Assembly: GCF_039962115.1 (NCBI RefSeq) | Contig: NZ_JAMPKJ010000032.1 | Coordinates: 1 to 64,000 of the forward strand | From: Funiculus sociatus GB2-C1 | GTDB taxonomy: Bacteria > Cyanobacteriota > Cyanobacteriia > Cyanobacteriales > FACHB-T130 | DNA length: 64,000 bases | Reading direction: 5' to 3' | In this document: piece after piece, positions 10,484 through 45,973 of the stretch | Numbering within the stretch: the stretch's first letter is position 1 | How the letters are laid out: each line of letters begins with the position of its first letter | Made by a program: the position numbers and the translations under genes | The notes under the pieces: model-generated | Database searches by the model: none | Seen by the model: only the letters and a program-made list of their open reading frames with translations | Told to the model about the DNA's origin: nothing

Positions 10484-10510
10484 AAACGCTTTCCGAGCAA
10501 GTAATTAGTG

Positions 10511-29445: not shown

Positions 29446-32400
29446 ATGGAAAAAAGGCGAAAGGTGACTACACAGTGGGATAAATTAATTCAAGAATTCC
29501 TCGATATTTTAGAACAGAAGGAAGTTCAACTCCTTTCTTGGGGAGTTGTGGATGGCGGATTCTCTGAGGATGAACTGGAAGAACTGGCTGAAGAATTCCT
29601 GACCGATAAAGAGGCTGATGAGGATGTTTGGGATTTTTTAGATGAGATGATAGAAGAACGGCGCTTGCTGTTTGAACTGAACCTCAGAGGGAATCGCCGT
29701 TTTCGCACCCGGATGGCAGAAGCCGTCAGATTATTTGCACGCTTACGTCAACTTTTCCCCAACAATAATTGGCAAACTGCACCCACTCTTGTTGCTGATT
29801 ATCGCTTTCAGATTCGTCCGCGAGTTTATCCACGACGGCACATTTCCCCAGAAAAAGCGATCGCACAGCTTGAAGCCGAAAAACTACTAAACCCCATCAG
29901 GCAAAAGGCGCTTGAGGCGATGCTGAGTTCACCCAACCGAGGTGAACTCCATCTGGCAGATTTCCAGTTACGTGCCACGATGCAGATGCTGCGGAACTTG
30001 AACAGTACCAAAAGCCGAGGCACAATCGTCTGCGCCGGAACTGGAACGGGAAAGACTTTGACATTTTACCTGCCAGCGCTGTCACACATTGCGGGTTTGG
30101 TGAAAAAGAATCAGTTTTGGAGCAAGGGACTCGCCATTTATCCCCGCAATGAACTGCTCAAAGACCAGTTTTCTGAAACCTATATTGAAGCACGCCGTCT
30201 GGATGTTGTCCTCCAGGCAGAGGGGAAGCGAAAAATCCTTATCGGTGCGTTCTTTGGACTGACTCCAAGAAAAGCTTCTTTAGAAGATAAGCAATTGAAT
30301 CGGTGGCAATCGGAAGCTGGGGGGTTTACCTGTCCCTACTTGCGATGTCCCAGATGCGAGGGTGCGCTATCCTGGCGACGGGTGGATGTGGAGGCAGGTA
30401 AAGAGCGACTTTCTTGTATGACCCAGTCTTGTGCTGCTGTCATTCAGGAAGACGAGGTGGTTTTGACTCGCGATCGCATGACGAAAACGCCTCCCGATTT
30501 AGTCTTCACCACTACAGAAATGTTGAATCGATCGATGGGGGACTCCCAGTACAGTCATGTATTCGGCATCGGTGCAGAGAAACCGCCTCAGATGGTACTG
30601 CTGGATGAGGTGCATACTTACACTGGAATTCATGGGGCGCAAGTGGCTTATCTGCTGCGGCGGTGGCAGAAGGTCATTAATAAAAAAGTACAATTCACCG
30701 GACTCTCGGCGACGCTGCAAAGTGCTGAGGAATTTTTTACCCAACTTACGGGTCTTTCCCCTGGTTCGGTAAAAGAAATTTCTCCCGGTGAAGACCTGTT
30801 GGCGGAGGGGATGGAGTATCAACTGGTTCTCAGGGGCGACCCGGTGTCGGGGACAAGTTTGCTCTCTACCAGTATCCAGACGGCAATGCTGTTGCGGCGC
30901 GTACTCGACCCCTCTCTCGACCCACCCAGTCACGGAATTTATGGTTCCCGCGTCTTTGCCTTCACCGATGATTTGGATGTCACCAATCGCTTATTCCACA
31001 ACCTTTTAGATGCTGAAGGTCGGGACAGTTGGGGTCGTCCGCTACCACGACGACAGCCACTGGCGGTTTTGCGATCGCATGGTGCTGCCAATAGTGCAGA
31101 ACGCCTCATCGCCGGACAATCCTGGCACCTGTGCGAGGAAATCGGTCATGCGCTGCAAATCCCCTTGAGTATTGGACGCACCAGTTCTCAGGATACAGGC
31201 GTTACCCCAGATTCAGACGCGGTTGTTGCTACTGCTGCCCTGGAAGTGGGATTTAATGACCCGGAAGTGGGTGCGGTGATGCAGCACAAGGCACCCAGAG
31301 ATATGGCATCGTTTCTCCAGCGGAAGGGACGGGCGGGACGGCGCAGAACGATGCGACCTTGGACAGTGGTGGTGCTTTCGGATTACGGACGCGATCGCAT
31401 TGCTTATCAAGGTTATGATGTCCTGTTTAACCCCATCTTGGAAAAGCGATCGCTCCCTATCGCCAACCGCTATGTTCTACGAATTCAAGCGGTTTTCGCC
31501 TTCATGGATTGGGTGGCTCAACAACTTCCGGCTAGAACTAGCAAAGGGAGTGTGTGGAATGACTTTGCCAGTCCGTCTACCTATGCAAGCGTTCGCCAGC
31601 GGCAGGAAATCACCCTAACTGAGAATATTCTAGAAACCGAGGCGGGGCAACGCGACCTGGAAGCTTACCTGCAATCGGCACTGCACCTCACTAGGGATGA
31701 AGCCGAGTCAATTCTGTGGGAACCGCCGAGGTCGTTGATGATGGCAGTGCTTCCCACGTTGTTGCGGCGGCTGAAGTCTGGGTGGAAGCGGATTCCCATT
31801 CACTCCGATGAATCAGATCAAGATTACCAGGTTCCCTTCGCACCTTTGCCGGATTTCGTTCCCCCGAACTTATTTAGCGATTTGCTGTTGCCAGAGGTGA
31901 CGATTACCACGCCGCCAGCGACGCGCAACAGCGAACCGGATGTCAACCCCATGCCGATTGTCCAAGCGCTGAAAACCTTTGCGCCTGGGAGAGCAACGCG
32001 CCGATTTGGGGTGCAGCATATCCGTGCGACTCACTGGATTGCCCCGCCAGATTTGCAGCGTTCAGAGCAGGAGTTGACCGTTGAGGACTACTGTAGCGAA
32101 TTTGAGGAAGCAGGGAATTTTCAGTTTTGGCAAGACGGACAGGTTGTTGAGATTCGCTGCGTTCGTCCTTGGGCGCTGAATCCGACCCAAGTTCCGGCTG
32201 ATGTCTCCATCACGTCCAATGCTCAGTTGGAATGGCGCACTCAGCTTGTACCGCCGGACTCCGGCACAAAACTGGATTTGCCTCAAGGTTCCCCCTGGTG
32301 CCAAATTATTGAAGAGGTTTGCTGCTTCAGCCACAGCCAACAATCGCCTGTGGAGGTGCGACGGTTTGCGATCGCATCCCATGCTAACCTCCGCTTCCGC

Positions 32401-32598
32401 AACGGTGGGGAATTGGATACTACGATCGCTTTACGCAGAAACAGGATGGTTGCCCTGCTGCAATCGGGTTTGCCCAATCGGTTGATGCTCTGGTGTTTCG
32501 CTTCCGCATCCCAGCTAGTTTCAGAATTAGCCCCAGTGACGCGAATCGGGAGAAGATTCGGGCGTTTCGGACGGCGTATTTCCGGCATCGGGTCTTGA
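29446..32598 (+). CDS. dpdJ: DpdJ helicase, N-terminal part of a frameshifted gene
   Basis: 1050 residues holding the two RecA lobes of a DEAD/DEAH-type helicase: CAGTGTGKTLTFYLPALS (near 197), LLDEVHTYTGIHGAQVAYLL (near 385), FTGLSATLQ, ATAALEVGFNDPEVG and FLQRKGRAGRRR (near 628). Between the lobes is a Cys-rich insert (CPYLRCPRCEGAL and a later CxxxxC). The last 30-60 residues are out of frame: from about 32403 the next frame reads DGCPAAIGFAQSVDALVFRF, the natural entry into the DUF1998-type domain encoded by the next frame. A net loss of one base would explain it. DpdJ is probably involved in restriction, and this copy is likely inactive unless the shift is a sequencing error or is suppressed. 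Confidence 0.82.
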   Translation: MEKRRKVTTQWDKLIQEFLDILEQKEVQLLSWGVVDGGFSEDELEELAEEFLTDKEADEDVWDFLDEMIEERRLLFELNLRGNRRFRTRMAEAVRLFARLRQLFPNNNWQTAPTLVADYRFQIRPRVYPRRHISPEKAIAQLEAEKLLNPIRQKALEAMLSSPNRGELHLADFQLRATMQMLRNLNSTKSRGTIVCAGTGTGKTLTFYLPALSHIAGLVKKNQFWSKGLAIYPRNELLKDQFSETYIEARRLDVVLQAEGKRKILIGAFFGLTPRKASLEDKQLNRWQSEAGGFTCPYLRCPRCEGALSWRRVDVEAGKERLSCMTQSCAAVIQEDEVVLTRDRMTKTPPDLVFTTTEMLNRSMGDSQYSHVFGIGAEKPPQMVLLDEVHTYTGIHGAQVAYLLRRWQKVINKKVQFTGLSATLQSAEEFFTQLTGLSPGSVKEISPGEDLLAEGMEYQLVLRGDPVSGTSLLSTSIQTAMLLRRVLDPSLDPPSHGIYGSRVFAFTDDLDVTNRLFHNLLDAEGRDSWGRPLPRRQPLAVLRSHGAANSAERLIAGQSWHLCEEIGHALQIPLSIGRTSSQDTGVTPDSDAVVATAALEVGFNDPEVGAVMQHKAPRDMASFLQRKGRAGRRRTMRPWTVVVLSDYGRDRIAYQGYDVLFNPILEKRSLPIANRYVLRIQAVFAFMDWVAQQLPARTSKGSVWNDFASPSTYASVRQRQEITLTENILETEAGQRDLEAYLQSALHLTRDEAESILWEPPRSLMMAVLPTLLRRLKSGWKRIPIHSDESDQDYQVPFAPLPDFVPPNLFSDLLLPEVTITTPPATRNSEPDVNPMPIVQALKTFAPGRATRRFGVQHIRATHWIAPPDLQRSEQELTVEDYCSEFEEAGNFQFWQDGQVVEIRCVRPWALNPTQVPADVSITSNAQLEWRTQLVPPDSGTKLDLPQGSPWCQIIEEVCCFSHSQQSPVEVRRFAIASHANLRFRNGGELDTTIALRRNRMVALLQSGLPNRLMLWCFASASQLVSELAPVTRIGRRFGRFGRRISGIGS

Positions 32599-34019
32599 CG
32601 GATGAGGGATTATGTGCACTCACCAATGTGTTTCAGCGGGATTGGCTGTGTCAAATCTATCTGTCAATGCTCTCTGCTCGCGCTTTGGCAGACCAAGTTT
32701 CTCTGGCTGAGGCGTTTGAGGCTCTCAGGGGTGAAGATATGGGTGAGGAAATGGCAGAGGTGCTGGAAAACATCTTTCAGACGTTGAATGTGGAGGAGAC
32801 GTTACTGGAAGAAGGGGAAGAACGGGATGAATTGGCACCCGACCGGACGCAGGGGCGGCAGAGGGTACACGACCGACTGCGAGGACTTTGCAACCTTGAG
32901 GCGGTTCAAAGGATTTTAAATCACCTTGCGCCAGTGCTTTGGTCAGAGCCAGATGAGGAGTGGCATCGGTGGGCGGCGCTGCGATTTAAGGCGACGCTGG
33001 GAGGGGCGTTGCTGGATGCTTGCGGGCAGTTGTGTCCTCAGTCTGATGCGGTTGAGCTGATTTTGGATATCGATCCGGGAGTGCGATCGGAATCGCCGGA
33101 TGCTGCTGCTATCCCTTCAGGAGTGGAGGAAATCTGGATTACAGAGTCTACAATTGGCGGCGGCGGGGTAATTGAGGAAATTTTACGGCGCTATGCGGCT
33201 GACCCGGCGAATTTCTTTCGGTTGGCTAGTAGTGCGCTTGAGCCTTCGGATTTCGAGATTGTGGACTCGGAACTGACTCGGTTACTGGAGTTGACCGAAA
33301 CGAGTGCTGAGGTAGCTGAGGCAATGGGGGATGTGCGGTCGGCAACAGGGTATGGTGAACTGAAACAGGCAAGCGATCGCCTCCGGAAAGTGCTGTCTTC
33401 TCAGGGGATTTTGGTGACGCATCCGGTGATGACGGCGATTAATGCACGGGTTTTGCGTCCGGGGAGTAATCAGGAAACGGATAAGCTGCTGCTGGATTTG
33501 ATTCGGTTGTGGCATGAGGAGGAGGAACGGTTAGGGATTGAGATTGATGCGCGGGTTTTTGCTTATGTAGTCAGCAATGATGACCAGTTGGATCGAGCGT
33601 TGTCGCATCTGGGTTTGGTTCAGCCTAATCCCTATTGGCGGTTTCAAGCGATTTATGGGTTGCTGTGGTCTAGAGGGAATATTTTGCGATCGCGTGCTTT
33701 GTCTTCCTACAATCCGTTTGCGGTGCTTCCCGATGCGGATCGAGAGCTGTTGCTGGATGTGTTACAAAAGGATGAATACACAGTTTGGCTGGATAATCCG
33801 GATTGGCGGGAGCAGGTGGCAGAGGCGTTTAAACGGGGTATCTCGGTTTCGCTGATTGCTCATCCTGATGCAAAGAGGGATTTGAAGTCGGCGATTTTGG
33901 GTTTGGCGGCGGAACCTGTGGAGCTTGGGTTTTTGCAGGTTTATCCGCAGGTTGAGGGGGTGCAGAGGCATCCGCGTGGGTTTGCCGTGAGGTTGAGGAT
34001 GAGGGAGGCGGTGCAGTGA
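32493..34019 (+). CDS. dpdJ: DpdJ C-terminal part, DUF1998-type domain, out of frame
   Basis: Carries the C-terminal 500 residues of DpdJ, including LGGALLDACGQLCPQSDAVE and EEIWITESTIGGGGVIEEIL, the pattern of DUF1998 domains fused to or paired with phage-defence helicases. The listed GTG is not a real start: the homologous reading continues upstream in this frame to about 32403, inside the first ORF. The two pieces together give about 1520 residues, a normal size for DpdJ. A separately translated fragment is possible but no ribosome site is visible. Confidence 0.75.
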   Translation: MFRFRIPASFRISPSDANREKIRAFRTAYFRHRVLTDEGLCALTNVFQRDWLCQIYLSMLSARALADQVSLAEAFEALRGEDMGEEMAEVLENIFQTLNVEETLLEEGEERDELAPDRTQGRQRVHDRLRGLCNLEAVQRILNHLAPVLWSEPDEEWHRWAALRFKATLGGALLDACGQLCPQSDAVELILDIDPGVRSESPDAAAIPSGVEEIWITESTIGGGGVIEEILRRYAADPANFFRLASSALEPSDFEIVDSELTRLLELTETSAEVAEAMGDVRSATGYGELKQASDRLRKVLSSQGILVTHPVMTAINARVLRPGSNQETDKLLLDLIRLWHEEEERLGIEIDARVFAYVVSNDDQLDRALSHLGLVQPNPYWRFQAIYGLLWSRGNILRSRALSSYNPFAVLPDADRELLLDVLQKDEYTVWLDNPDWREQVAEAFKRGISVSLIAHPDAKRDLKSAILGLAAEPVELGFLQVYPQVEGVQRHPRGFAVRLRMREAVQ

Positions 34020-34183: not shown

Positions 34184-35440
34184 ATGACAACAGATCAGTT
34201 AGATTTTGCTCTTAGCCGTTACAAGGCAGCACTTGATGTAATCGAGAAAGGAGAAAAAAATCTATCAGCCGAAGCCGTTCTTTGCGTATTGATGGCTCGC
34301 GATGCAGTTCAGTCTGCCTTAACTGATACCCGCCAAATTCCTGAAGAGAAAGTTATTCAAGTTGTTGAGTTAGATAATCGCGTAAGAGAACAGGGTAAAC
34401 GCATTGTTCAAACGGTTAATCTAGCAGATTTGCGTACTATTTTAAAACCTCCAGAGGATGCCTGGTGGTGGTTTTTACCGGAGCCGCTCCATCGGTTAGA
34501 TGTTGTGGACTGGTTGTGGAATGGATTGACGATTACTTCCCTAACAGCTTCATTGAGTCTATTAGTAGACATTTCCAACCGTTTTTTGAGCGGTGGGTTG
34601 GATTTAGTTGGCTCTTTTGCCGTGATTTTCCCCAGTATATCGGCACTGTTAACAGTTGGCGGTGTGTTAACCAAGGCAGGAAGCCAAGGTATAGAGCAAG
34701 TTTTAGCCAAACTAAGAATTGATAACCATCTCTGGCAGGAGATTAAGTTTGGATTTTCCCTGCTACTTTTACTAAGTTTAATTGGCTTTCGGTATCGCCT
34801 ACCCAGTATTTCTGACTACTTTAATCACCAAGGGTTTGAAAACTACAAGAATAGCAATTGGGGAAGTGCTAAGTCTGATTACGAGAGAGCTATTAGCCTT
34901 AATCCAGATAATGCGGAAGCTCACTACAATTTGGGACGACTTTACGAACAGTTACAAGAAATAGATAAAGCTGAAACTCAGTACAAGTTTGCTGTGGGTG
35001 GAGACTTTAGTACTGCCCACAGCGCTCTAGCACGTTTGTATATTCAGAAAAAAAAGTATGCAGAAGCAGTACTTCTGATATACAGAGGATTAGAATTGGT
35101 TAGAGCGGAAAATAAAAAAACAAGAAAGGAAAATAAAAAACTATTATATGAATTGCATAAAAACTTGGGTTGGGTACGTGTGGAGCAAGAACGTTATACT
35201 GAAGCTCGGATTGCACTTGAAAGCGCAATTACTATAGAAAAATCGATTTCTCTAGATGAAGTCACAGGCTCTGCTCATTGTTTGTTAGCCCAAGCTCTGG
35301 AAGAGAACCGTAAAAGTACTCCGGAAAAGGCACTGCCAGAATGGGATTTATGTATTGCATATGGCACTCCACGCTCTCCAGAGGAAGATGAGTGGTTTTA
35401 CATAGCAAATCAACGTTTGAACGCCAAGGGAGCGAAGTAA
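34184..35440 (+). CDS. Membrane-anchored TPR protein
   Basis: About 418 residues; ATG chosen over a TTG three codons upstream. The N-terminal 100 residues are helical, then three hydrophobic segments (around 108-128, 138-160 and 185-203) make an inner-membrane anchor. The C-terminal half has TPR repeats, clearest in YKNSNWGSAKSDYERAISLN and AHYNLGRLYEQLQEIDKAET. It is the first of three same-direction genes with TPR repeats ending in a CHAT protease, and its stop overlaps the next start (TAATG). It may position or sense for that protease. The cassette sits between dpdJ and dpdK. Confidence 0.7.
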   Translation: MTTDQLDFALSRYKAALDVIEKGEKNLSAEAVLCVLMARDAVQSALTDTRQIPEEKVIQVVELDNRVREQGKRIVQTVNLADLRTILKPPEDAWWWFLPEPLHRLDVVDWLWNGLTITSLTASLSLLVDISNRFLSGGLDLVGSFAVIFPSISALLTVGGVLTKAGSQGIEQVLAKLRIDNHLWQEIKFGFSLLLLLSLIGFRYRLPSISDYFNHQGFENYKNSNWGSAKSDYERAISLNPDNAEAHYNLGRLYEQLQEIDKAETQYKFAVGGDFSTAHSALARLYIQKKKYAEAVLLIYRGLELVRAENKKTRKENKKLLYELHKNLGWVRVEQERYTEARIALESAITIEKSISLDEVTGSAHCLLAQALEENRKSTPEKALPEWDLCIAYGTPRSPEEDEWFYIANQRLNAKGAK

Positions 35441-36411
35441 TGCCAAATCCTGCTGAAATTACTGCCTTTACAGGCACTGTGGAGATCAAACGGAACGGGC
35501 AGCAAAGTTGGGAACAAGTGTCTGTGGGCACAAAAATAGTTTTGGGTACTCTGCTCAGGAAGAAGTCTGGTGCAACTGTCAAGATTCGCTGTGGCAATGG
35601 TACACCAAGCGAACCCGTACCTGACGATCTGCTGGTGGGTTTGCGGTACATTTGCCCAACACAAGTGATGAGTCCGGGAGATCCCAGGATTCCCTACATC
35701 ATCAGCCCACGAGATACCCTCATCCTTACCGATACACCAATACTGCGCTGGAATGCGGCTGCGGATGCTAGTAGCTTCACTGTAACGGTTAGAGGTCGGG
35801 AGTTGGAGTGGGCTAAGCAAGTGAGCCGAGAAGAGGTTTGTCATGATAATCGTTGCGAGTTTGTTTATCCAGGTGAGCCACCGTTGCAGCCAGACGTTAG
35901 CTACAAACTAGTAGTTGAGGCAGATACAGGCAGAAATTCCAATGAGGAAACGGCATTGGGATTTAAGCTGATTGATGCAGAGCAGGCTGAAACCGTGCAG
36001 GCACTTGCCCAAAACATTCAGGAACAGGACTTATCCGATTTATTGAAGGCATTAGCTCTAGCTAATCTCTATGCAGACCAAAACTTAGTGGCTCTAGCCA
36101 TTGAAACCCTAGAAGCATTCATTAAAGATGTAGAGGCTGCTGGTGTTTTCAACCAACCCGCCGAACTTTCTGCTGTTTACACTCAACTGGGTGAGCTGTA
36201 TCGCTGGATTGGACTATTCCGTGAAGCTGAGGTGCAGTATCAAAAGCTAGTTGCCCTAGCAGAAGTTGAGGTAGGGGAAGTCAGATGGAGCCTCGGTAAG
36301 AGGAAGGAAGCCATAGATTCCCTAGAGAAAGCTAAGGCGATTTATGAAGAATTAAGAGATAAGCAGCGAGTTAGCGAACTGGAAGAGCGACTTACTGAGA
36401 TGAACGGCTGA
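35440..36411 (+). CDS. FecR-like/TPR protein of the CHAT cassette
   Basis: 323 residues from the ATG that overlaps the upstream stop; the frame is open further upstream. Residues 1-50 (ITAFTGTVEIKRNGQQSWEQ, VGTKIVLGTLLRKKSGATVK) resemble the FecR-type beta domain, residues 85-180 look like a fibronectin/Ig-like strand-rich domain (TPILRWNAAADASSFTVTV), and the C-terminus has TPR-like helices (AVYTQLGELYRWIGLFREAE). Similar FecR-Ig-TPR proteins occur next to CHAT proteins in cyanobacteria. Without a signal peptide it should be cytoplasmic. Its role is probably recognition or scaffolding. Confidence 0.65.
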   Translation: MPNPAEITAFTGTVEIKRNGQQSWEQVSVGTKIVLGTLLRKKSGATVKIRCGNGTPSEPVPDDLLVGLRYICPTQVMSPGDPRIPYIISPRDTLILTDTPILRWNAAADASSFTVTVRGRELEWAKQVSREEVCHDNRCEFVYPGEPPLQPDVSYKLVVEADTGRNSNEETALGFKLIDAEQAETVQALAQNIQEQDLSDLLKALALANLYADQNLVALAIETLEAFIKDVEAAGVFNQPAELSAVYTQLGELYRWIGLFREAEVQYQKLVALAEVEVGEVRWSLGKRKEAIDSLEKAKAIYEELRDKQRVSELEERLTEMNG

Positions 36412-36501
36412 GTTACGTAGCGATGAGTATTTCCAGATCGTTCTAAAGCCGAGGAGTTCAGCTCGAACTTCCATAACTCTTTAACTAAGGGCAAACAGCG
36501 T

Positions 36502-38901
36502 ATGACTCAGAGTCCACAGCTAGATCGAAACGATCAGTTGCAAAATCTGTTGGAGTTCTGGCAAGAAAAATTAGAAACATCTCAGGAAAACAGTGATCGC
36601 CAAGGTGAGACAATAGCGCTGGGAAACCTGGGATTGGTTTACTTAGAGCTGGAAGAATATGCCCTAGCCATTGAAAAACTCGATCAATGTCGAGTTATTG
36701 CACGAGGATTGCCAGATCGCCAAATCGAACAGCAAGCTATATTAGCTTTGGCTAATAGCTATTACTACCAAGGACACCAACAATATTTTCAGCAGATTCC
36801 TCAAGTCCTAGCAGCCTTGCAATCCTGGAAGCGATCACTGACATTTTATCGCGAAATCAATTATCGCCAGGGAGAAATGCAAGTTCTCCAAGCTCTAGGA
36901 ATTGCTTACGATGGCTTTTACGACCGACACAAAGCAATCGAGTATTTCCAGAATAGTTTAGCCATTGCCGAGGAACTAAGCGATCGCCCAATGCAAGGCC
37001 GTCTGCTTGGGGACTTAAGCGTTCCTTACCTGGCGTTAGAAAACTATGATAAGGCAATCGAATACGCCGATCGCAGCCTAGCTGTTGCTAGAGAACTTAA
37101 GGCTAACAGCAATGAACTCCCTGCTACTGTACTTATGGAAGTGGCTAGGACTGAATGGTTAGCTCTGAGCAATTTAGGTAATGCTTATTTCTTGCAGAAA
37201 AACTACGATCGGGCAGCAGAGTATTACGAACAGATGCTTGCGATTGCCCTAGAATCTCAAGACTCTTTTGGGGAAATGCAAGCTCTACACAACTTGGGAG
37301 CAGTTTACCTTGATCGGGAAGAGTATGATAAATCGGCGGATAAATTCCAGCAAGCCTTAGCGTTAGTAAACGAACTCAATGACCCTCAACAGCAAGCAAT
37401 CGGTTTAGTTGCACTGGGGAGAGTCGCTAAACAACGAGGCAACATTTCAGAGGCAATTAAATACTATCAGGACTCGATCAAAATTACTGAGTCAATTCGA
37501 GGTATTCTCAAGGTTTCAGAAAATGCTGCCTCCTTCGCGAATTTATGGATTAGTGATTACGAAGAGCTGATTAATCTACTCGTTTCCGAAAACTATTTTC
37601 AAGAAGCCTTCAATTACGTCGAACGAGCGCGATCTCGATCATTCCTCGACCAACTGGCTAATGCTCGGATAGACTTTCGCGCTGGAGCAGACGCCGAGCT
37701 CATCAAACGGGGAGAAGCTCTAGAACGTGAAATTATAAGGCTCCGACGGGAAGATCCCTTTAACGAGCAGTTACAAGCGCTTGAACAAGAATACCAAGAC
37801 TGGTTAACCGAGTTAAAAATTCACAGCCCGGAGACGGTGGCTCTTAAAAGCGTAGATGTTGCCTCTATAGCTGAAATTCAAGAGCGTCTTGACACAGACA
37901 CCACCCTAGCTGAATACTTTGTCGCGGATGAACGGACTCTTGTCTTCCTGCTCACTAAAGATAGCTTCAAAACCGTTGCTTTAGATGTTCGTCGAGAAAA
38001 ACTCTCGAAAGAGATACATCTTTTTCAAGACCATTCTGAGAGAGATAACCTTTATCCGGATACACTCCAGAATCTATACGACTGGTTAATTGCTCCTCTT
38101 AAGTCCGATTTCAAAACGCCTAAACTGAGTATCGTTCCTCACAGCATTCTCCACTATCTTCCCTTTGCTGCTCTAACCGATGGAGATCGCTACCTCATTG
38201 AGGACTATACTTTATTGAATCTACCTAGTGCCAGCACCCTGCGATTTTTACCTGATAAAATTATTTCCGGAACTGAAACTATCTTGATACTAGGTGACCC
38301 ATCGGTTGAAAATCAACCTTCTTTGCCCTTTTCTAGAGAAAGCGCAAACGAGATTGCAGATCTATTCAACACTAAAGCCCTAGTAGGTAAAGAGGCGACT
38401 GAAAGCGCTGTTTGGTCTAAAGCTACGAACGCTAAGATTCTACATATTGCTGCTCATGGCAAGTTCTATAGCAACAATCCTCTGTTCAGCACTATTCACT
38501 TAGCCCCAGACGAGCAAGCTGAGGATTTTCAGAAAGACGGTCAGCTTGAAGTTCACGAAGTTTACAACCTCAAGTTAATAGCTACGAATTTGGTTGTTCT
38601 TAGTGCTTGCGAGACAACCCTTGGTAAGTTGAGTCAAGGGGATGAAGTCGTTGGGCTTAACCGAGCCTTTATCTATGCTGGCACTCCAACCCTAATAGCC
38701 AGTCTCTGGCAGGTAGATGAAAGAGCAACAGCATTGCTGATGAGACGGTTTTACACCCGCCTTAAAGCAGGGATGGGTAAAGCTGAAGCATTGCGACAGG
38801 CACAGATGGAAATGCGAACAGATTATCCTCATCCTGACTTCTGGGCCGCATTTGTGTTGACAGGAGATGGGGGTGAAAGCTCACAACAAGAATCTGGTTA
38901 A
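36502..38901 (+). CDS. TPR-CHAT caspase-like protease
   Basis: A 799-residue protein. The N-terminal 360 residues are TPR repeats (for example GLVYLELEEYALAIEKLDQC and LGNAYFLQKNYDRAAEYYEQ). The C-terminal 350 residues are a CHAT domain with the catalytic His near 652 in LHIAAHGKFY and Cys near 703 in VVLSACETTLGK, followed by RAFIYAGTPTLIASLWQVD. CHAT proteases are caspase relatives; in some bacterial systems they are activated by nucleic-acid-sensing complexes. AGGG precedes the ATG. It lies just upstream of dpdK in the same direction, with two partner genes. A link to Dpd restriction is inference from position. Confidence 0.87.
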   Translation: MTQSPQLDRNDQLQNLLEFWQEKLETSQENSDRQGETIALGNLGLVYLELEEYALAIEKLDQCRVIARGLPDRQIEQQAILALANSYYYQGHQQYFQQIPQVLAALQSWKRSLTFYREINYRQGEMQVLQALGIAYDGFYDRHKAIEYFQNSLAIAEELSDRPMQGRLLGDLSVPYLALENYDKAIEYADRSLAVARELKANSNELPATVLMEVARTEWLALSNLGNAYFLQKNYDRAAEYYEQMLAIALESQDSFGEMQALHNLGAVYLDREEYDKSADKFQQALALVNELNDPQQQAIGLVALGRVAKQRGNISEAIKYYQDSIKITESIRGILKVSENAASFANLWISDYEELINLLVSENYFQEAFNYVERARSRSFLDQLANARIDFRAGADAELIKRGEALEREIIRLRREDPFNEQLQALEQEYQDWLTELKIHSPETVALKSVDVASIAEIQERLDTDTTLAEYFVADERTLVFLLTKDSFKTVALDVRREKLSKEIHLFQDHSERDNLYPDTLQNLYDWLIAPLKSDFKTPKLSIVPHSILHYLPFAALTDGDRYLIEDYTLLNLPSASTLRFLPDKIISGTETILILGDPSVENQPSLPFSRESANEIADLFNTKALVGKEATESAVWSKATNAKILHIAAHGKFYSNNPLFSTIHLAPDEQAEDFQKDGQLEVHEVYNLKLIATNLVVLSACETTLGKLSQGDEVVGLNRAFIYAGTPTLIASLWQVDERATALLMRRFYTRLKAGMGKAEALRQAQMEMRTDYPHPDFWAAFVLTGDGGESSQQESG

Positions 38902-38937
38902 GTTAAATAAGTACATCTCTGCAAAGAATGAGATGAA

Positions 38938-39459
38938 ATGCCCTCCCGATATATTCACTCCCGCCTAAGCTCCCGCCAAGTCCCCGACTTGCTCCAAGCC
39001 ATCTTCCTTTCCGAACTAATGACCCCCAGCGGATGCCTGTGGCTCGTCTCCCCCTGGATATCAGACATCCCCATTATCGATAACAGCGCCAACACCTTCC
39101 TGTGCTTGGAGCCATCTTGGAGTCGTACCCGCGTTCACCTCTCGCAAGTCCTCGCCACCCTAGCCGAACAAGGAACCACCATCCACATTGCCACCCGTCC
39201 CGACACCCACAACCACAGCTTTATTGAAGGACTCAAAGCCAGGATTGACCGCCTCGACGTAGCCGTGCGCTTCTACATTGCAGAAGAACTCCATACCAAA
39301 GGTATCCTGGGAGACGGCTATTATCTCGCGGGTTCCATGAACTTCACCTACAACGGCATTACCGTCAACGAAGAAGCCTTAACTTACGAGACATCCCCAG
39401 AAGTTATTGCCGAGCAACAGCTAATTTTCACCAACCGTTGGGGAGGGGCGAAGCCATAA
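38938..39459 (+). CDS. dpdK: DpdK, phospholipase-D-type nuclease
   Basis: 173 residues with one PLD motif: His119, Lys121 and Asp126 in LHTKGILGD followed by AGSMNFTYNG. The N-terminus has WLVSPWISDIP, a strand typical of PLD nucleases in restriction systems. One HKD motif per chain implies a dimer. DpdK is one of the restriction proteins in the Salmonella Dpd system. The 3' 180 bases recur 1.5 kb downstream, beyond two inserted genes, next to dpdD. Confidence 0.87.
   Translation: MPSRYIHSRLSSRQVPDLLQAIFLSELMTPSGCLWLVSPWISDIPIIDNSANTFLCLEPSWSRTRVHLSQVLATLAEQGTTIHIATRPDTHNHSFIEGLKARIDRLDVAVRFYIAEELHTKGILGDGYYLAGSMNFTYNGITVNEEALTYETSPEVIAEQQLIFTNRWGGAKP
39276..39459. repeat. dpdK 3' segment, duplicated copy 1
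   Basis: This end of dpdK matches 40797-40985 at roughly 80-85 percent of bases, including the last codons. The two copies flank the minus-strand pair of genes like a long target duplication or a recombination scar. Confidence 0.85.
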
Positions 39460-39477
39460 CCAACCGCAGTCATTGCG

Positions 39478-40197
39478 CTAATCTAAAACCGTCCGCTCCA
39501 GGGAAATCACTTGGTCTGGTGCCAGCAGTCCTCCAACTTTCACGACTTGCAGTTCCCCAGTTTCCTGAGGGTTTTGCTCCCTGACTTTAGCGATCGCAAC
39601 TTCGAGTCCAGAGGCTTGAGCAATATAGATTTTCTCTCCACTCCTCAGCACCCAGATGGGTTGGGGCCAAGTGTATCGAGGGTGAAGCACTGCTTTGTGG
39701 ATGACTTGATGCGTGAACTGGACGATTTGCTCGATATCGGCATCATTACAAAACTCCCCCAACTCAGACTGAAAAATCTTTCTGAGTTCTCCCGTAGGAA
39801 TGTGTTGGGCAACTTGCTCCGATGGTGTTGGTGATGGTTTGGGACGCTCTGATTGAGTGTGAGCCTGCACAACCTTTGACTCGATAAAGCGACTCACTTG
39901 AGTCATGATCGAGTCAAAATCCCGCTCCATCAGCACATGACCTAGATGTTCTCTCAGTAGATTTCTCAGCTTCTCATCCGAGATATTGATGCCGCAGGTT
40001 CTCAGATAGACGGGAAGCCGCTCTCCCCAATCCCGACCGCAGCCAACTTCCCCATTAGAGGCATCTTCTGCCTCGACCAATTCCATCAACCGTTGGTAAC
40101 GGGTCTCACTATCCGTCATCGTGTGGGATTGTGTAGCTTGCTGCTTTGATAGCGAAGCTTTCGCAGAGGAATCAGGAGTGGGGAGCGACTGAGTCAT
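39478..40197 (-). CDS. Protein of unknown function paired with a GNAT enzyme
   Basis: A 239-residue protein that I do not recognise. The N-terminus is Ser/Gln-rich and disordered-looking, followed by helical segments with RYQRLMELVEAEDASNGEVG and a C-terminal strand-rich part (IWVLRSGEKIYIAQASGLEV). It overlaps the upstream GNAT gene by four bases (ATGA), so both are made together. The pair was inserted between dpdK and dpdD. It may be a partner of the acetyltransferase, for example an antitoxin-like or substrate protein; nothing in the sequence proves this. Confidence 0.7.
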   Translation of the reverse strand: MTQSLPTPDSSAKASLSKQQATQSHTMTDSETRYQRLMELVEAEDASNGEVGCGRDWGERLPVYLRTCGINISDEKLRNLLREHLGHVLMERDFDSIMTQVSRFIESKVVQAHTQSERPKPSPTPSEQVAQHIPTGELRKIFQSELGEFCNDADIEQIVQFTHQVIHKAVLHPRYTWPQPIWVLRSGEKIYIAQASGLEVAIAKVREQNPQETGELQVVKVGGLLAPDQVISLERTVLD

Positions 40198-40754
40198 GGC
40201 TGTTGCCGTAGGGTTTCAAAATAGATGAGATTGTCCGGTTCTTCAGGGTCGGAACCGCAATCGAGCAGTCTCACCCTTAGCTTTCTGTAGAATCCTAACG
40301 CACCTGGCAAGGCATGTAAGCCTATCCTGCCTTGATAACCTAATTCATAACTTCGGGCGATCGCAAAATCGATTAAGTTTCCACCAACCCCTTTGTAGGT
40401 AGGAGGATTCGTCATGGCAGGTCTATTCCAAGGAGCCGTTGCCAGCCCTCTAATGTACACTAACCTCTGTCTCAATTGAGATTCAATCTGGCAGCGCTTT
40501 TTCAAAAGGTCGATGGTCATCAAGCCCTGAGTGACCCCATCACACTCAATCGCATAAAGTTCATCTCCCGGTAACAGCTTGGCTCGACGGCTCTTGGCAA
40601 CCCAATCCCAGTACTCATCCTCTGCTCCAGTCCCCTGAAGTAAAGGTTCCCAAAGCGTTTCGGCATCATTCAAGTGCTTCTGAGTTACCTCCGTCAGGAT
40701 GGCATCAACGACTTGTCTATCTCGAACTCTAAGAAGCTGAATAGGGCGATTCAA
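40194..40754 (-). CDS. GNAT-type N-acetyltransferase-like protein
   Basis: 186 residues. The region YKGVGGNLIDFAIARSYELG has the acetyl-CoA-binding pattern (a degenerate Q/R-x-x-G-x-G/A loop and following helix), and RIGLHALPGALGFYRKL is the terminal strand-helix of GNAT folds. GNAT proteins transfer acetyl groups to amines; some are toxins acting on aminoacyl-tRNA. It is the first gene of the two-gene insert on the minus strand. The substrate cannot be guessed. Confidence 0.65.
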   Translation of the reverse strand: MNRPIQLLRVRDRQVVDAILTEVTQKHLNDAETLWEPLLQGTGAEDEYWDWVAKSRRAKLLPGDELYAIECDGVTQGLMTIDLLKKRCQIESQLRQRLVYIRGLATAPWNRPAMTNPPTYKGVGGNLIDFAIARSYELGYQGRIGLHALPGALGFYRKLRVRLLDCGSDPEEPDNLIYFETLRQQP

Positions 40755-40793
40755 CGAACATTGGGCAACTCGACAACTGTTTCATCATAAGAC

Positions 40794-40988
40794 TTGTTGT
40801 TCCACATTACTGAAGAACTCCATACCAAAGCTATCCTGGGAGACAGCTATTATCTCGCGGGTTGCATGAACTTCACCGACAACGGCATCATCCTCAATGA
40901 GGAAGCTTTAACTTACGAGACATCCCCAGAAGCGATCGCCTGTCAACAGGTGATGTTCGCGAACCGCCAGGGAGGGGTGAAGCAATGA
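40794..40988 (+). pseudogene. 3' fragment of dpdK next to dpdD
   Basis: The 64 residues repeat the C-terminal part of DpdK, including HTKAILGDSYYLAGCMNFTD, and lack the first 110 residues. The stop overlaps the dpdD start as ATGA, so this is the original dpdK-dpdD junction, and the intact dpdK upstream is the other side of the duplication. Several substitutions separate the two copies, so the event is not very recent. It probably does not function alone. Confidence 0.85.
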
Positions 40989-43267
40989 CCAATTCTATCA
41001 ATACCGATGTCCGCTGCTTCCTAGAGCAGTTCTTCGGTACAGGCAATCAATTAGACTTGGGAAAAATCGAACGCGGTGAAGGAAACCACGCCAAAATCCG
41101 TCCTTGGCTGGAACGACTGACGCAAGCCGAACCCCAACCAACCGTTCTCCCCCGCTGGCGCACAGGAGGTGTGGATTGGTACGGTATCGCCCAAAGCGAT
41201 CGCCAATTACGCCGCTTGAGTGAAGAATTGATGGCATTTATCGGTCCCACCTACTCCACATTTCGGGGACAACGAGCGCAACTCAACCTTCAAGACTCCG
41301 TAGAAGCAGCAGTTTACGAATTCACCGGAGGTGCAGCCGTCAAATTTTGTGGAAATGACCCTGATGGTCGTGCCACTGCTGTTTGGGACGCGCTAGAACG
41401 GATGCGCCGGGTGAGCGATCGCAGAGTGAAGCGGAGCGCAGAAATCCCCCGTCCTACAGGTCGGGTACTGCGCGACTTCTACATGGCACTGCAAGCAGGC
41501 GATCGCCCCTCTGCCGAAAAAGAACTGCAATACCTGCTCGACCAGCATCGCCTCGATGCCCTGAATCTCCTATTTCTGCGAGTGCAACTGTTAGCCGAAC
41601 TGGAGCAATGGAACGAATTACTCGACCTCCCCGAACTGCCCAATCTCTTGCAAGTTCGCCGACCCTTTGCCGTCACCCAAGCCTTGCTCCAGGCAGTATA
41701 CCGCACTCAACTCCAACAATTTGAAGACAATAACGCCCTCACCAGTGCCGTCACCTATTTCCGAGAAGTCGCTTTCCCCCGCTACAGTAACCTTTTCGCC
41801 GTCCGTGCTGGCAGTAAACTCCCAGAAGTCCTAAAATTGTTCATGCTGCTGGCAGTGGGAGGAGAATCACCGCGACCCGCTCTCCGCGACGAACTGATAG
41901 CAACTCCCGGAATTGATGAGTCCCACCGCCGCTACTTGCAAAGGCTAGCTGCACTGCTCCCCGATGCCACGCCACCCCGCGAGGGAGAACCCTTACAACG
42001 AGCGGAACAGCTATCAAAAGACGGAGACTACGATCAAGCCTTTTCACTACTGGGCGATGCGCCGCCGTCCAAGGAAAAAGTTCGCCTGCTTCTCCAGTGC
42101 GCCTACGAGTTGCAAACCTTGGCAGCGGACAAAGCCGCGTTGCAGGCGTTCGACGAGCTGACCCCTGACGACCAAAACGCCTTACAGAAGGTACGCTGGA
42201 ATCAAAATTATCTTGCCCAACTGCGGGGGGGTCAGGAAGCGGTAACTGAGGATACCCCCAGCGCTGAATCAGTCCCGACCAATTGGCTAGAGTGGCTGTC
42301 CCAGCTCGATAAAGACCCGAATTGGAAACGGGCGCTTTATGTTGCTCGGCAGGGGTCTACCGAGTGGGATGCCACCAGCTTACTTGCAGAACCAGGGGCA
42401 GTGGAACAGTTTGCCGAATTACTGGATAAAGTTGGCTCAAAAGCCGAGACTGTTCTCCACAATGCCCTTCCCTACCTACTGGCATTCTTCCAAAAAGACG
42501 AGCAATTGCCCCGCCGAGAGTTTCTCACCCTTTATAACTCGCTACTGGACTTGCTCGTTCTCAGTACAGAGGGTGGAGATGCCGATTTAGTCTTGTTCAA
42601 TGAATTAGCGATCGCTCTCTTAACTCTAGGCATAGATAGGGCAAAGTATATCGACATCGTCGGTCACGCGATCGACCTGTGGAATCAGTTTGCCGCTCCT
42701 AAAACAGTGGATTGGGTGCTGGACTTTCTCGACGTGCTAGTAGTGTATCCCTGTCCGGTCAAGGAGACGCGATCGCAACTCCTCTTTGCCACTGCTGAAA
42801 CTCTGCGACGCTTCGCAGGACGCATTGATGAAGACCAATGGGGAGTCTTTCGCTCTCTCGTTAAAGACTTGAACTTGCAAGAATCGCTCCCAGATTTGCT
42901 TGGCGAACAAGCAAGCTTGGTGGAGCAAAGCCTTGAGGGTGAGACGAATATCTACCAAAAACTGAAGGATAAATCCGTTCTCATCTACACCCTGACCGAA
43001 TCGGCAGCATTAAGGGTAAAAAGCATTTTGGAAGCCGCTTGCCAAGGGGTTAAAGTCCACCTTAGCCATGACAAAGGAGGTAACGAGCAGCTTCGTCAGT
43101 GGGTGAGAAATTCTGACCTTGTTGTGATGGTAACAGCGAGTGCCAAACACGCCGCAACAGGTTTTATTGAGGCTAATTGCCCCTCAGATATTTCCAAAAT
43201 TCTGATGGTTAATAGCAAAGGCAGTGCAAGTATGCTACGTGAAATCCGGCAGTATCTAAGTCAGTGA
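40985..43267 (+). CDS. dpdD: DpdD
   Basis: A 760-residue protein, mostly helical, with no catalytic motif that I can name. The C-terminal 100 residues (KDKSVLIYTLTESAALRVKS, GVKVHLSHDKGGNEQLRQWV, SDLVVMVTASAKHAA) look like a Rossmann/CheY-like or DUF2325-like domain. The rest resembles tandem helical repeats. It begins at the ATGA junction with the dpdK fragment and its end overlaps the convergent NACHT gene by 12 bases. It is assigned to DpdD because of the dpdK linkage and its size; DpdD is needed for restriction in Salmonella. Confidence 0.65.
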   Translation: MTNSINTDVRCFLEQFFGTGNQLDLGKIERGEGNHAKIRPWLERLTQAEPQPTVLPRWRTGGVDWYGIAQSDRQLRRLSEELMAFIGPTYSTFRGQRAQLNLQDSVEAAVYEFTGGAAVKFCGNDPDGRATAVWDALERMRRVSDRRVKRSAEIPRPTGRVLRDFYMALQAGDRPSAEKELQYLLDQHRLDALNLLFLRVQLLAELEQWNELLDLPELPNLLQVRRPFAVTQALLQAVYRTQLQQFEDNNALTSAVTYFREVAFPRYSNLFAVRAGSKLPEVLKLFMLLAVGGESPRPALRDELIATPGIDESHRRYLQRLAALLPDATPPREGEPLQRAEQLSKDGDYDQAFSLLGDAPPSKEKVRLLLQCAYELQTLAADKAALQAFDELTPDDQNALQKVRWNQNYLAQLRGGQEAVTEDTPSAESVPTNWLEWLSQLDKDPNWKRALYVARQGSTEWDATSLLAEPGAVEQFAELLDKVGSKAETVLHNALPYLLAFFQKDEQLPRREFLTLYNSLLDLLVLSTEGGDADLVLFNELAIALLTLGIDRAKYIDIVGHAIDLWNQFAAPKTVDWVLDFLDVLVVYPCPVKETRSQLLFATAETLRRFAGRIDEDQWGVFRSLVKDLNLQESLPDLLGEQASLVEQSLEGETNIYQKLKDKSVLIYTLTESAALRVKSILEAACQGVKVHLSHDKGGNEQLRQWVRNSDLVVMVTASAKHAATGFIEANCPSDISKILMVNSKGSASMLREIRQYLSQ

Positions 43268-45973
43268 GGAATCGAGGGGGATGAATAGGTTGTCTTCGAT
43301 GCGCGAACGAACTTCTGGATTCACTCTACTATTATTCAGGCAATCCATTAGCAACTTATTAGCTTGATAATACTGCTCTAGCACTTCAAAACTTTTATCA
43401 TAGAGAAATCGCCGCTCAAATGTCCAGTCGTAGCCAATATGGCGATATTCCATTATAATATCTCTTAATTCTTCAGCCCACTCTCCACCATTATATTTCC
43501 ACCAATCCACAACTTCTTCTAATTTTTCATTCAAGGATGGTAGTTCGTTTTTAAGTTTTTGAATTAACATAATTACTTCAAAGTTATGAGATATAGTTTG
43601 GGGAATATTAAAGTAAAGCTTTTGTTCTAATTCACAATTTAGTTTATAGACTTCCGATAGATCAGATATTTTGATTTGCCCGAAAACACACCAATCAGCT
43701 AATTCACTAGAAATTGTAAATGCACGAACAAGACGATAGTCAACCTCAATGTCACATTCAAAACTATTACCAAGTTTTAAAATACGACGAAGGTTGGAGT
43801 CAATAGAAAAAGCCAATTCAAAGCCATTCTCATTATCAATCCAACTCCATCTATAACCGGGTTCAATGTCGTGGAAATCAAGAAAATCAGTAAGGATAAT
43901 ACTACAGCTCAAATAAAATGCTCGAACTGCTGCTGGTTTATAGGGAGTGGTAGCCGCCTTATAGTTCCGATTTGCTTGTATAAGAAACTCTTGGCAGTCC
44001 ATGTCACTGATTAATGGAATTGCCCAGTATGGATTGTTATGCGAAGATAAATATAAATCATTTCTTAATGCATCTTGATTGCAATTATTGTTACCTTTTT
44101 CTAAAAAACAGAAAGCTTTTTCTACTAAGCGCAAAAACTTCTCATCACTTGGGTTTGTTTCAATATTTTTAACTTCTAGCTTATAAAAATTCTGTTTGAT
44201 TAATAGCATAAATTCTTCAGTATTTGGCAAGGCTCCTAGCATCCTAAAAAAGACTTCACGCCATCGTGGTTCTGCTAAATGGGTGAGTATCAACCGCCAA
44301 CCTTGCTGATAACTTGGTAAATTTTCAGCAAAAAAACGCAAAAAATCCTGAAGATTTGGCAGTATTTCGACTATCATAAAAAAGATTTCACGCCACCGTG
44401 TTTCCGCTATATGCGTGAGTATTTTATGCCAGCCTTTTTGAGATACAACTAATTTTTCAACAGTCAAATACTCTTGAAAAGTCTGATGAGAAAATGCGTA
44501 TATTTTCCATGTTTTCTTTACCAATAATCCAGATAATAATTCAATGTTATACAAAGCACTAGAACAGTTTTCGAGAAACGGCAAAATTTCCGCTTCTTCA
44601 AAAGAAAACTTGCCCTCCTCAAAAGTAATAGCAGCTATCTGCCTTAAAACCTTTCTCAACTCAACTAAATCTATATTAGGTACTTCTATCTGAGTACGCT
44701 CATTAAATTGATTCCATTTCTCTAGCAGCAGGTCTATCCCTTCTTTGTAAAGGTCAACTCGTTTAGAAGGCAAATCACATTTATTTTGGAAAATCAAGCA
44801 AATCAGATGTAGTAATAGGGGTGTATCAGCCAGCTCTCGAATTCGCTGATTTTTTCGGAGTCTCAGCTTATCAATTAACTGAGTTGCTTTGATTGACCTC
44901 TTCCTTTGCGTATCTACCGTAACCTCGTTAAACCAGCTTTGTATAAATTCTTCAATTTGCTGTTGTTCAAGATCTGCTACTTTACAGAAGGTAAAGTTAC
45001 TAAAGTACTTAGACTTGTAAGATTGAAACTCTTTTCGACAACTAACGATAAATCGATTGTCTCTATACTCGTCAATTAACTTATAAATCTCTTGACCGAC
45101 AACGTGGATTTTTTCTTCCGTAACCTCATCTAAACCATCTAGCAAAAATAGGAACATTCCGTTACTAAGTAATATTTCCAGTTCCAGCTCTGAAACCCCA
45201 ACACGGCAATATTTTTTGCGGATATAACTTAGTAAATCAATTTCATCCGCACCTCTGGCATTTTCAGCCAAGGTTTTCAGGCTAACAAAAACAGGTACAA
45301 GCTTGGGTTGAAACTCAATCTCATCACAATGAATAGCAATATATTGCAGTAAGGTAGTTTTTCCCGCACCTGGTTTACCCAACACCATCAGCTTAGGGTT
45401 TCTCAGCACTACCTCATTCCATAATTGCCGTTCCTGACTAAACTCCGTTGAACCGAAGCCTTGAGATTCATTGAGCTTAGTCTGAACATAAATTCTGCTG
45501 AGATTCCCCCGCATGGGAGTATAGAGCAGATTGAACGTACATAAGGTTTCGCACTCGTCTCGGATTTTCTTATCGAAATGCGATCGCACTTTCTGCACCA
45601 GTACCTCTATATCCTCTGAAGCGGACTCTGCGATCATACTCTCAACCCCGACAGAATCAGAGTTCACTCCTGTTGTTTCTTCTGCGGTATCTGTCTGTTG
45701 AGGTAGTGGCTCTTCTGCTGATTGTGATGTCTGCAATCGCATTGGTGGTTGAACAAATATCTTTGTTAGTTCCCCCAGTTCAACTCCCAATGCCGTCGCT
45801 ATCTTTTCAAGAGTTGTTGGTTTAGGTTCAGCCGTCTGTCCAGTTGCAATCTTACTGATAAGACCTTTATCTAAACCAGTTACTTGCTCAAGCTTGTACT
45901 GCGTGAAGCCTTTTTCTTTCAGTAATTTCTTAAATGCCTCTCCAGCTTGCTTATTTTTCTTAGGTCTTGGCAC
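43256..45973 (-). CDS. HTH-NACHT NTPase
   Basis: A 905-residue protein starting at GTG after GGGG. Residues 10-70 form an XRE-type helix-turn-helix (FTQYKLEQVTGLDKGLISKI). The NACHT ATPase follows: Walker A MVLGKPGAGKTTLLQ near 200 and the Walker B strand FLFLLDGLDEV near 278. The C-terminal 350 residues contain two near repeats (ILTHIAETRWREIFFMIVEI and ILTHLAEPRWREVFFRMLGA) and a helical domain. NACHT proteins act as phage sensors or death switches in bacteria. It is convergent with dpdD and inside the Dpd island. Four spaced TTCAAC copies lie just upstream of its start. Confidence 0.88.
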   Translation of the reverse strand: MPRPKKNKQAGEAFKKLLKEKGFTQYKLEQVTGLDKGLISKIATGQTAEPKPTTLEKIATALGVELGELTKIFVQPPMRLQTSQSAEEPLPQQTDTAEETTGVNSDSVGVESMIAESASEDIEVLVQKVRSHFDKKIRDECETLCTFNLLYTPMRGNLSRIYVQTKLNESQGFGSTEFSQERQLWNEVVLRNPKLMVLGKPGAGKTTLLQYIAIHCDEIEFQPKLVPVFVSLKTLAENARGADEIDLLSYIRKKYCRVGVSELELEILLSNGMFLFLLDGLDEVTEEKIHVVGQEIYKLIDEYRDNRFIVSCRKEFQSYKSKYFSNFTFCKVADLEQQQIEEFIQSWFNEVTVDTQRKRSIKATQLIDKLRLRKNQRIRELADTPLLLHLICLIFQNKCDLPSKRVDLYKEGIDLLLEKWNQFNERTQIEVPNIDLVELRKVLRQIAAITFEEGKFSFEEAEILPFLENCSSALYNIELLSGLLVKKTWKIYAFSHQTFQEYLTVEKLVVSQKGWHKILTHIAETRWREIFFMIVEILPNLQDFLRFFAENLPSYQQGWRLILTHLAEPRWREVFFRMLGALPNTEEFMLLIKQNFYKLEVKNIETNPSDEKFLRLVEKAFCFLEKGNNNCNQDALRNDLYLSSHNNPYWAIPLISDMDCQEFLIQANRNYKAATTPYKPAAVRAFYLSCSIILTDFLDFHDIEPGYRWSWIDNENGFELAFSIDSNLRRILKLGNSFECDIEVDYRLVRAFTISSELADWCVFGQIKISDLSEVYKLNCELEQKLYFNIPQTISHNFEVIMLIQKLKNELPSLNEKLEEVVDWWKYNGGEWAEELRDIIMEYRHIGYDWTFERRFLYDKSFEVLEQYYQANKLLMDCLNNSRVNPEVRSRIEDNLFIPLDSSLT

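What the first reader, a model, noticed from the sequence alone, without database searches (positions are those of the whole stretch)
34184..38901. CHAT protease cassette embedded between dpdJ and dpdK
Three same-direction genes (membrane TPR, FecR/Ig/TPR, TPR-CHAT with His652 and Cys703) interrupt the restriction operon. A caspase-like protease wired into a DNA-modification defence system would add an abortive, protein-cleaving arm. I know of no description of such a Dpd-CHAT combination.
Basis: inference. Interest (0 to 1): 0.85.

Follow-up and report, generated by a model that had tools for sequence, protein, structure and literature searches.

The report
CHAT module in swappable Dpd slot
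A cyanobacterium carries a possible protease module inside its Dpd DNA-modification defence operon, at a spot where related cyanobacteria carry quite different, often defence-type modules, so the spot looks like an exchangeable cargo bay rather than part of a dedicated Dpd-protease machine.

Summary
In detail: three intact same-strand genes (membrane TPR, FecR/Ig-like TPR, TPR-CHAT with His652/Cys703) lie between dpdJ and dpdK (34184-38901). A purpose-built Dpd-CHAT system is not supported. None of 44 other dpdK loci showed the triad in the stretches fetched. Its middle gene has relatives in 142 of 388 genomes of the order, dpdK in 9 of 388. I inspected 20 of the 21 best outside relatives, and they lie away from dpd genes.
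Instead there is a cargo slot. Coleofasciculus sp. S288 is 95.3% identical up to the dpdJ stop and 93.7% again from 14 nt before dpdK, with 5.4 kb of unrelated cargo between. Other cyanobacterial dpd loci carry UG19 reverse transcriptase, NsnA/B, type IIG R-M, AIPR or HNH modules there. In 31 other loci the gap is at most 160 bp. Cargo differs between loci with 91-97% identical flanks. Best reading: a semi-autonomous, possibly abortive protease module, one cargo among several. Defence is inferred from position, not shown.

The parts
29446..34019 (+). dpdJ (YprA-like helicase); two frames, 29446-32598 and 32493-34019, split by a one-base deletion near 32423 relative to S288. Left edge of the slot is its stop codon.
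   Evidence: NCBIfam NF041067: profile 1-982 in the first frame, 999-1482 in the second; alignment to L118
34020..38923 (.). cargo slot A: 4.9 kb with no match to S288 while both flanks are 94-95% identical
   Evidence: blastn against L118: 29410-34019 at 95.3%, 38924-39475 at 93.7%; no nucleotide match to any of 16 other slots compared
34184..35440 (+). cargo gene 1: membrane segment(s) plus TPR, 418 aa
   Evidence: Pfam TPR; hydropathy; homologue, in some only of the TPR half, close to the FecR-like gene in 20 of 20 loci inspected
35440..36411 (+). cargo gene 2: FecR/Ig-like N-terminus plus TPR, 323 aa
   Evidence: weak TPR; relatives in 142 of 388 genomes of the order at E 0.001, many partial
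36502..38901 (+). cargo gene 3: TPR-CHAT protease candidate, H652/C703
   Evidence: PF12770 E 2.8e-74; residues
38938..39459 (+). dpdK (PLD-family nuclease); the 14 nt before its start are shared with S288 and form the right edge of the slot
   Evidence: NF041068 214.6 bits; edge sequences
39478..40754 (-). cargo of a second slot (B): two ORFs without Pfam family; the first whole and part of the second also present in S288
   Evidence: no Pfam hits; blastn 39464-40328 to L118 at 93%
40800..40993 (+). partial second copy of the dpdK 3' end, directly before dpdD
   Evidence: 85% nt identity to S288 dpdK 3' end; tblastn residues 109-172 at 72%; profile match
40985..43267 (+). dpdD
   Evidence: NF041061 601.6 bits

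Best explanation
The interval between dpdJ and dpdK in this cyanobacterial group of Dpd loci is an exchangeable cargo slot with sharp edges (the dpdJ stop codon; a few bases before the dpdK start). Modules enter and leave, most likely by recombination in the flanking dpd genes. The mTPR/FecR-like/TPR-CHAT triad is the cargo in this genome. It belongs to a widespread cyanobacterial family of scaffold-plus-protease modules that mostly live without dpd. Most likely it works semi-autonomously. The TPR proteins form a membrane-linked scaffold or sensor that holds the CHAT protease inactive until an infection or stress signal releases it to cleave host or phage proteins and stop growth. In the Dpd setting it would be a second layer behind restriction, perhaps sharing transcription. 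Shown: the genes, catalytic residues, slot edges, cargo exchange, and the triad without dpd. Inferred: defence role, protease activity, abortive outcome, co-expression, the recombination route.
For: Flanks 95.3% and 93.7% identical to S288 with wholly different cargo. Further pairs: L120/L192 flanks about 97% with RT versus IIG cargo; L119/L173 flanks 91-94% with small ORFs versus AIPR. Cargo more alike than flanks: L198/L120 RT cargo 88% over 2.6 kb against 79-81% flanks; L173/L124 small-ORF cargo 95% over 428 bp against 78-82.5% flanks. 10 of 18 other measured slot-group loci hold a gene of a defence-type family: UG19 RT 3 (broken in L049), NsnA/B 1, type IIG 4, AIPR 1, nSTAND 1. One member of each kind was scanned; the others are assigned by 84-95% nt identity. 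31 dpd loci outside this group have dpdJ-dpdK gaps of -1 to 160 bp. Leftover dpdJ 3' ends inside slots L120 and L049 and a leftover dpdK 3' end in the window fit recombination in the flanking genes. No dpd genes near triad relatives in 20 of 20 loci inspected, save a 29% dpdE-like match in L097; a CHAT match over the catalytic sites in 16 of 20.
Against: Only one locus has CHAT in the slot, so this cargo's role is argued from other cargoes. PADLOC has no match for the two main S288 cargo proteins; their nSTAND label is 34.3 bits against a cut-off of 34. Nothing defensive was recognised in L119 (five ORFs scanned) or L121 (two of six scanned, DUF2887 only); L123 and L204 were not scanned; L174 and L195 are nearly empty; L198 also holds a kinase-FHA-HSP70 gene. 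Away from dpd, some relatives sit with TPS secretion genes (L098, L102) or DUF1822 and a sigma-like gene below cut-off (L096). PADLOC matches among 69 neighbour proteins are scattered and have no measured background. The dpdJ frameshift may mean this Dpd restriction arm is already broken.
Confidence: 0.75

Rival explanations
1. Dedicated Dpd-CHAT system: Dpd sensing of unmodified DNA directly activates the CHAT protease as a built-in abortive arm.
For: Same strand, short gaps (164 nt, overlap, 90 and 36 nt), intact catalytic pair, and no promoter-like or terminator-like + strand site in the dpdJ-mTPR gap.
Against: 0 of 44 other dpdK loci showed it; the near-identical sister locus has other cargo; triad relatives mostly without dpd. 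Some cargo in the slot points the other way, e.g. NsnA/B in L124.
Confidence: 0.08
2. The triad is a regulatory or envelope-signalling proteolysis module (HetF-like or FecR-like signalling) that hitch-hiked into the slot and has no defence role.
For: Some relatives sit with TPS secretion genes (L098, L102) or DUF1822 (L096); 25 CHAT matches in this genome; a Nostoc CHAT protein (all2170) is linked to loss of nitrogen fixation in a phage-resistant substrain (PMC10811720, passages).
Against: Most slot cargoes with a family assignment are defence-type. Close relatives such as L086-L091 are three-gene sets without dpd, and others adjoin a caspase (L093; L100 by 86% identity) or an NB-ARC ATPase (L092).
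Confidence: 0.3
3. Assembly chimera: the cassette was misjoined between dpdJ and dpdK.
For: Draft genome in 142 contigs; dpdJ carries a frameshift.
Against: Both edges coincide, within a few bases, with the ends of flank similarity to other loci with other cargoes, and the contig runs on through dpdD.
Confidence: 0.03

Closest known systems
Dpd (7-deazapurine in DNA) restriction-modification islands
   Same: dpdA, E, F, G, H, J, K, D found by NCBIfam above cut-off (DpdJ over two frames); DpdI below cut-off; DndB-domain (DpdB-like) protein at 46419-47513.
   Different: 4.9 kb of foreign cargo between dpdJ and dpdK, further cargo between dpdK and dpdD; 31 other loci are compact at dpdJ-dpdK.
Auxiliary/backup effectors within BREX loci (PMC12839542, passages only)
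   Same: Varied, partly autonomous effectors placed among the core genes of a modification-based defence system.
   Different: Those in the passages seen are nucleases; here the host is Dpd, the position is one fixed slot, and one cargo is a CHAT protease candidate.
Craspase Csx29 (type III-E TPR-CHAT; PMC9729208, search listing with start of abstract only)
   Same: TPR plus CHAT architecture; weak profile match, 42 bits at residues 542-767.
   Different: Far below the 300-bit cut-off; different partner genes. Type III-E genes were not searched for as such.
Cyanobacterial mTPR/FecR-like/CHAT triads without dpd (e.g. L086-L091)
   Same: Same three genes in the same order, CHAT 44-48% and FecR-like 44-50% identical.
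   Different: No dpd genes within the 14-18.5 kb fetched.

Membership tests
Dpd system | TGT-like DpdA and DndB-like DpdB for modification | tested here: met
   DpdA NF041059 476 bits; DndB PF14072 at 46419-47513
Dpd system | restriction genes dpdD-dpdK intact | tested here: inconclusive
   all found, but dpdJ is in two frames and DpdI scores under its cut-off
Dpd system | 7-deazaguanine bases in host DNA | not testable with these tools
   needs mass spectrometry
CHAT peptidase family (PF12770) | CHAT profile over cut-off with His/Cys pair | tested here: met
   250.6 bits against a cut-off of 24; H652/C703, 16 of 16 matches covering both sites, 20 loci examined
CHAT peptidase family (PF12770) | proteolytic activity | not testable with these tools
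   -
Craspase (Csx29) | profile score over NCBIfam cut-off | tested here: not met
   42 bits against 300
Dedicated Dpd-CHAT system | triad conserved in other dpd loci | tested here: not met
   0 of 44 loci; none in the further loci
Exchangeable cargo slot | conserved flanks, unrelated cargo, fixed edges | tested here: met
Exchangeable cargo slot | cargo gives phage protection | not testable with these tools
   inferred from family names

The most novel reading that the evidence does not exclude
The dpdJ-dpdK slot is an evolved effector socket. Dpd supplies a common trigger, or shared transcription tied to DpdJ/DpdK engaging unmodified DNA, and whichever module sits in the slot (CHAT protease, reverse transcriptase, NsnA/B, IIG R-M, AIPR) acts as a plug-in second strike when restriction fails.
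Probability: 0.15. Interest if true: 0.85.

Novelty: new variant of a known kind. Interest (0 to 1): 0.6.

Why it matters
It replaces a single odd gene arrangement with a general one: a fixed site inside a modification-based defence operon that takes up different modules. That makes cyanobacterial Dpd loci a place to look for new defence modules (the CHAT triad and the S288 nSTAND pair are candidates) and gives natural pairs of loci, alike but for the cargo, for testing whether nested systems act together. The searches listed no paper whose listing or read passages described this slot; most subscription papers are absent from that library.

Tried and rejected
Dedicated Dpd-CHAT system: rejected. 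Transposon-borne insertion: no direct repeat of 8 nt or more at the two slot edges, and none of the three genes is a transposase or recombinase by Pfam. Same-species empty site: DpdJ and DpdK have no real match in the same-species genome G416 (other dpd genes not searched there), so it offers no empty site. Base composition: GC3 of the triad (0.34-0.44) differs from dpdJ, K and D (0.53-0.65) but not from dpdE-I (0.31-0.43), so it settles nothing. Structure of the FecR-like protein: the single-sequence model was too poor to search, so no fold search was run. Solved structures: the matches to the CHAT protein lay in or near its TPR part. Promoters and terminators: no more than in shuffles. Defence neighbourhood of triads away from dpd: 69 of the 118 neighbour ORFs were scanned with PADLOC. 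The first 25 of 123 matched families each matched 1 or 2 proteins (pAgo, Cas12k, DrmD and RT among them); the number of proteins matched is not shown and there is no background, so no claim. A typed motif pattern found the His/Cys pair in only 8 of 13 loci; it was too narrow and was replaced by alignment. Remnants of other cargoes in the window slot: no convincing tblastn match. The 14 nt before dpdK are shared with S288, where 8 of them end its HNH gene, a weak hint that an HNH cargo was replaced. Plasmids: the FecR-like protein matched 2 records and DpdK 5; only one, Nostoc sp. C057, was examined. In a first phylum sample DpdK was over its cut-off in 4 of 386 genomes. Dropped rows: L160 and L161 (partial dpdK, no dpdJ) and L051 (no dpdJ found) were left out of the gap counts; L055 and L127 have degenerate or cut dpdJ and were not measured; L203 is a dpdK fragment. 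L172 equals L118, and L050, L175 and L176 repeat named loci by a shared stretch. L193, L194, L196, L197 and L199-L202 were taken as repeats from matching contig lengths only and not analysed.
Full report
Observation. H652 and C703 are correct and align to H and C in 16 of the 16 matches that cover both sites; 20 loci were examined. Around them lie dpdA, dpdE-dpdI, dpdK, dpdD and a DndB-domain (DpdB-like) gene. DpdI scores below its cut-off. dpdJ is split by a one-base deletion relative to the S288 relative, so DpdJ may be inactive here, unless this is a sequencing error.

Is the triad tied to Dpd? Not as far as sampled. The genome has 25 CHAT matches. The first 215 residues of the FecR-like frame (read from 35392) match 142 of 388 genomes of the order at E 0.001, many only in part. 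dpdK matches 9 of 388 at E 1e-15. Two genomes appear in both lists, this one and G191, and the 20 kb fetched around G191's broken dpd genes showed no triad match. I fetched the surroundings of 20 of the 21 best FecR-like matches outside this window (all down to G328 except G604; one place per genome). All 20 have an mTPR match close by, in some only its TPR half, and in L099 with another ORF between. 16 have a CHAT match spanning the catalytic sites. None has dpd genes within the 10-18.5 kb fetched; the one weak dpdE-like match, in L097, is 29% identical. These are top-ranked matches, not a random draw.

What is the interval? I scanned genome contigs for DpdK and got 44 loci; none showed the triad at E 1e-7 in the stretches fetched. 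In 31 of them (actinobacteria, planctomycetes, Paenibacillus and four cyanobacteria) dpdJ and dpdK are -1 to 160 bp apart by match ends, and in 30 of 31 at most 50 bp. Two of the 31, L132 and L133, are the same locus in two assemblies or nearly so. A group of cyanobacterial loci is different. With the window I count 21 such loci. Of 19 where the gap can be measured, 17 (window included) hold 0.86 to 7.1 kb and two hold 113 and 191 bp (window gap 4918 bp from the coordinates). 14 of the 21 are in the tree; L055, L139, L191, L192, L195, L198 and L204 were grouped by resemblance only.

The closest locus, Coleofasciculus sp. S288 (L118), fixes the edges. It is 95.3% identical to the window up to the dpdJ stop, has unrelated cargo for 5.4 kb, and is 93.7% identical again from 14 nt before dpdK. 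Its cargo is a 1192-aa protein with an nSTAND NTPase match at the cut-off, a 311-aa partner, a 106-aa ORF and an HNH gene. PADLOC has no match for the two large proteins and weak PtuB-like matches for the HNH protein. Other cargoes are DUF4365 with a UG19 reverse transcriptase (L120; L049, where the RT is broken; the RT also in L198), NsnA/NsnB homologues (L124), a type IIG restriction-methylase (L126, L139, L191, L192), and AIPR (L173). L139, L191, L192, L049 and L198 were assigned by 84-95% nucleotide identity to a scanned member. That is 10 of 18 other measured loci with a gene of a defence-type family. The rest hold unassigned ORFs, the HNH gene, DUF2887, remnants, or next to nothing, and not every ORF was scanned. 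L198 also carries a kinase-FHA-HSP70 gene. UG19, NsnA/B and IIG are PADLOC labels; that NsnAB belongs to the system called Menshen, and that AIPR stands for abortive infection, I recall.

Exchange is shown by comparing cargo with flanks. L120 and L192 have about 97% identical flanks but RT versus IIG cargo. L119 and L173 have 91-94% flanks but different main cargo. L198 and L120 share 88% identical RT cargo on 79-81% flanks, and L173 and L124 share a 95% identical 428-bp stretch on 78-82.5% flanks. A tree of DpdJ plus DpdK (21 rows) places the window and S288 as sisters (support 1.000) and puts unlike cargoes on neighbouring tips, such as NsnA/B L124 with RT L049. Broken extra copies of the dpdJ 3' end inside the slots of L120 and L049, and of the dpdK 3' end in the window beyond two further foreign ORFs, fit homologous recombination through the flanking genes. 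No direct repeats of 8 nt or more mark the window slot.

How it may work. The triad looks like a scaffold-plus-protease module. Other relatives place TPR/FecR-like genes beside a C14 caspase (L093; L100 by 86% identity), an NB-ARC ATPase with a kinase-TPR fusion (L092), or a CHAT-TPR fusion (L104). Still others place them beside TPS secretion genes (L098, L102) or DUF1822 with a sigma-like gene below cut-off (L096). The first group recalls the conflict systems of multicellular bacteria of PMC7159879 and PMC8195603. I saw passages of both; neither mentions FecR, PMC7159879 does not mention CHAT, and the 'chat' passage shown from PMC8195603 was an author's name. The second group suggests envelope signalling. 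I therefore hold defence as more likely than not, but not shown. Triggering by Dpd is unsupported beyond position and shared direction.

Relation to what is known. The nearest idea in print that I found is the auxiliary effectors set among BREX core genes (PMC12839542, passages). The three Dpd papers whose passages I saw (PMC12458937, PMC11888242, PMC6884629) have no match for 'CHAT'. PMC12458937 has none for 'hotspot' or 'dpdK' either. PMC11888242 notes variable dpd gene content and neighbouring genes including HNH. No paper in the library held both 'FecR' and 'CHAT domain'. Most subscription journals are not in the library.

Verdict. Real arrangement, misread as a dedicated system. It is best described as one cargo of an exchangeable slot inside cyanobacterial Dpd loci: a new variant of the known practice of nesting defence modules.

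Noticed in passing
29446-34019, near 32423: dpdJ is split into two frames by a one-base deletion relative to S288, whose copy is in one frame; true mutation or sequencing error unknown.
   Followed up: partly
39478-40993: Second cargo stretch between dpdK and dpdD ending in a broken dpdK 3' copy; S288 shares the first ORF and part of the second and has an extra ORF with an HSDR_N match below cut-off.
   Followed up: partly
47943-53743: A second YprA-like helicase (1665 aa; DEAD, Helicase_C, MZB below cut-off) with a PLD-domain gene right behind it, a Dpd-like pair downstream of dpd; helicase and PLD relatives also lie close together in L052-L054.
   Followed up: no
13568-14599: A 158-aa NERD fragment matching the start of BREX PglW, followed at once by an IS6 transposase: looks like a broken BREX remnant.
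   Followed up: no
15460-17574: The DpdA protein carries an N-terminal DUF6884 domain; PMC11888242 (passage) links DUF6884 to DpdC, so this may be a DpdC-DpdA fusion. PMC12839542 (passage) gives DUF328 for DpdC.
   Followed up: no
43256-45973: HTH-NACHT-NCH2 protein on the - strand directly after dpdD; relatives next to dpd in L119, L173 and, as a fragment, L124.
   Followed up: no
10508-13274: Tyrosine recombinase, ParA and ParB genes upstream of dpd; DpdJ and DpdK have no real match in the same-species genome G416 and four other genomes of the family, so the dpd locus looks acquired.
   Followed up: partly
L093 5023-7320, L100 2357-4651: A C14 caspase gene (L100 by 86% identity) beside a CHAT gene and the mTPR/FecR-like pair in two genomes.
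   Followed up: partly
L127 7851-10489: dpdJ is cut short and runs straight into dpdK, as if the slot and the dpdJ 3' part were deleted together.
   Followed up: no
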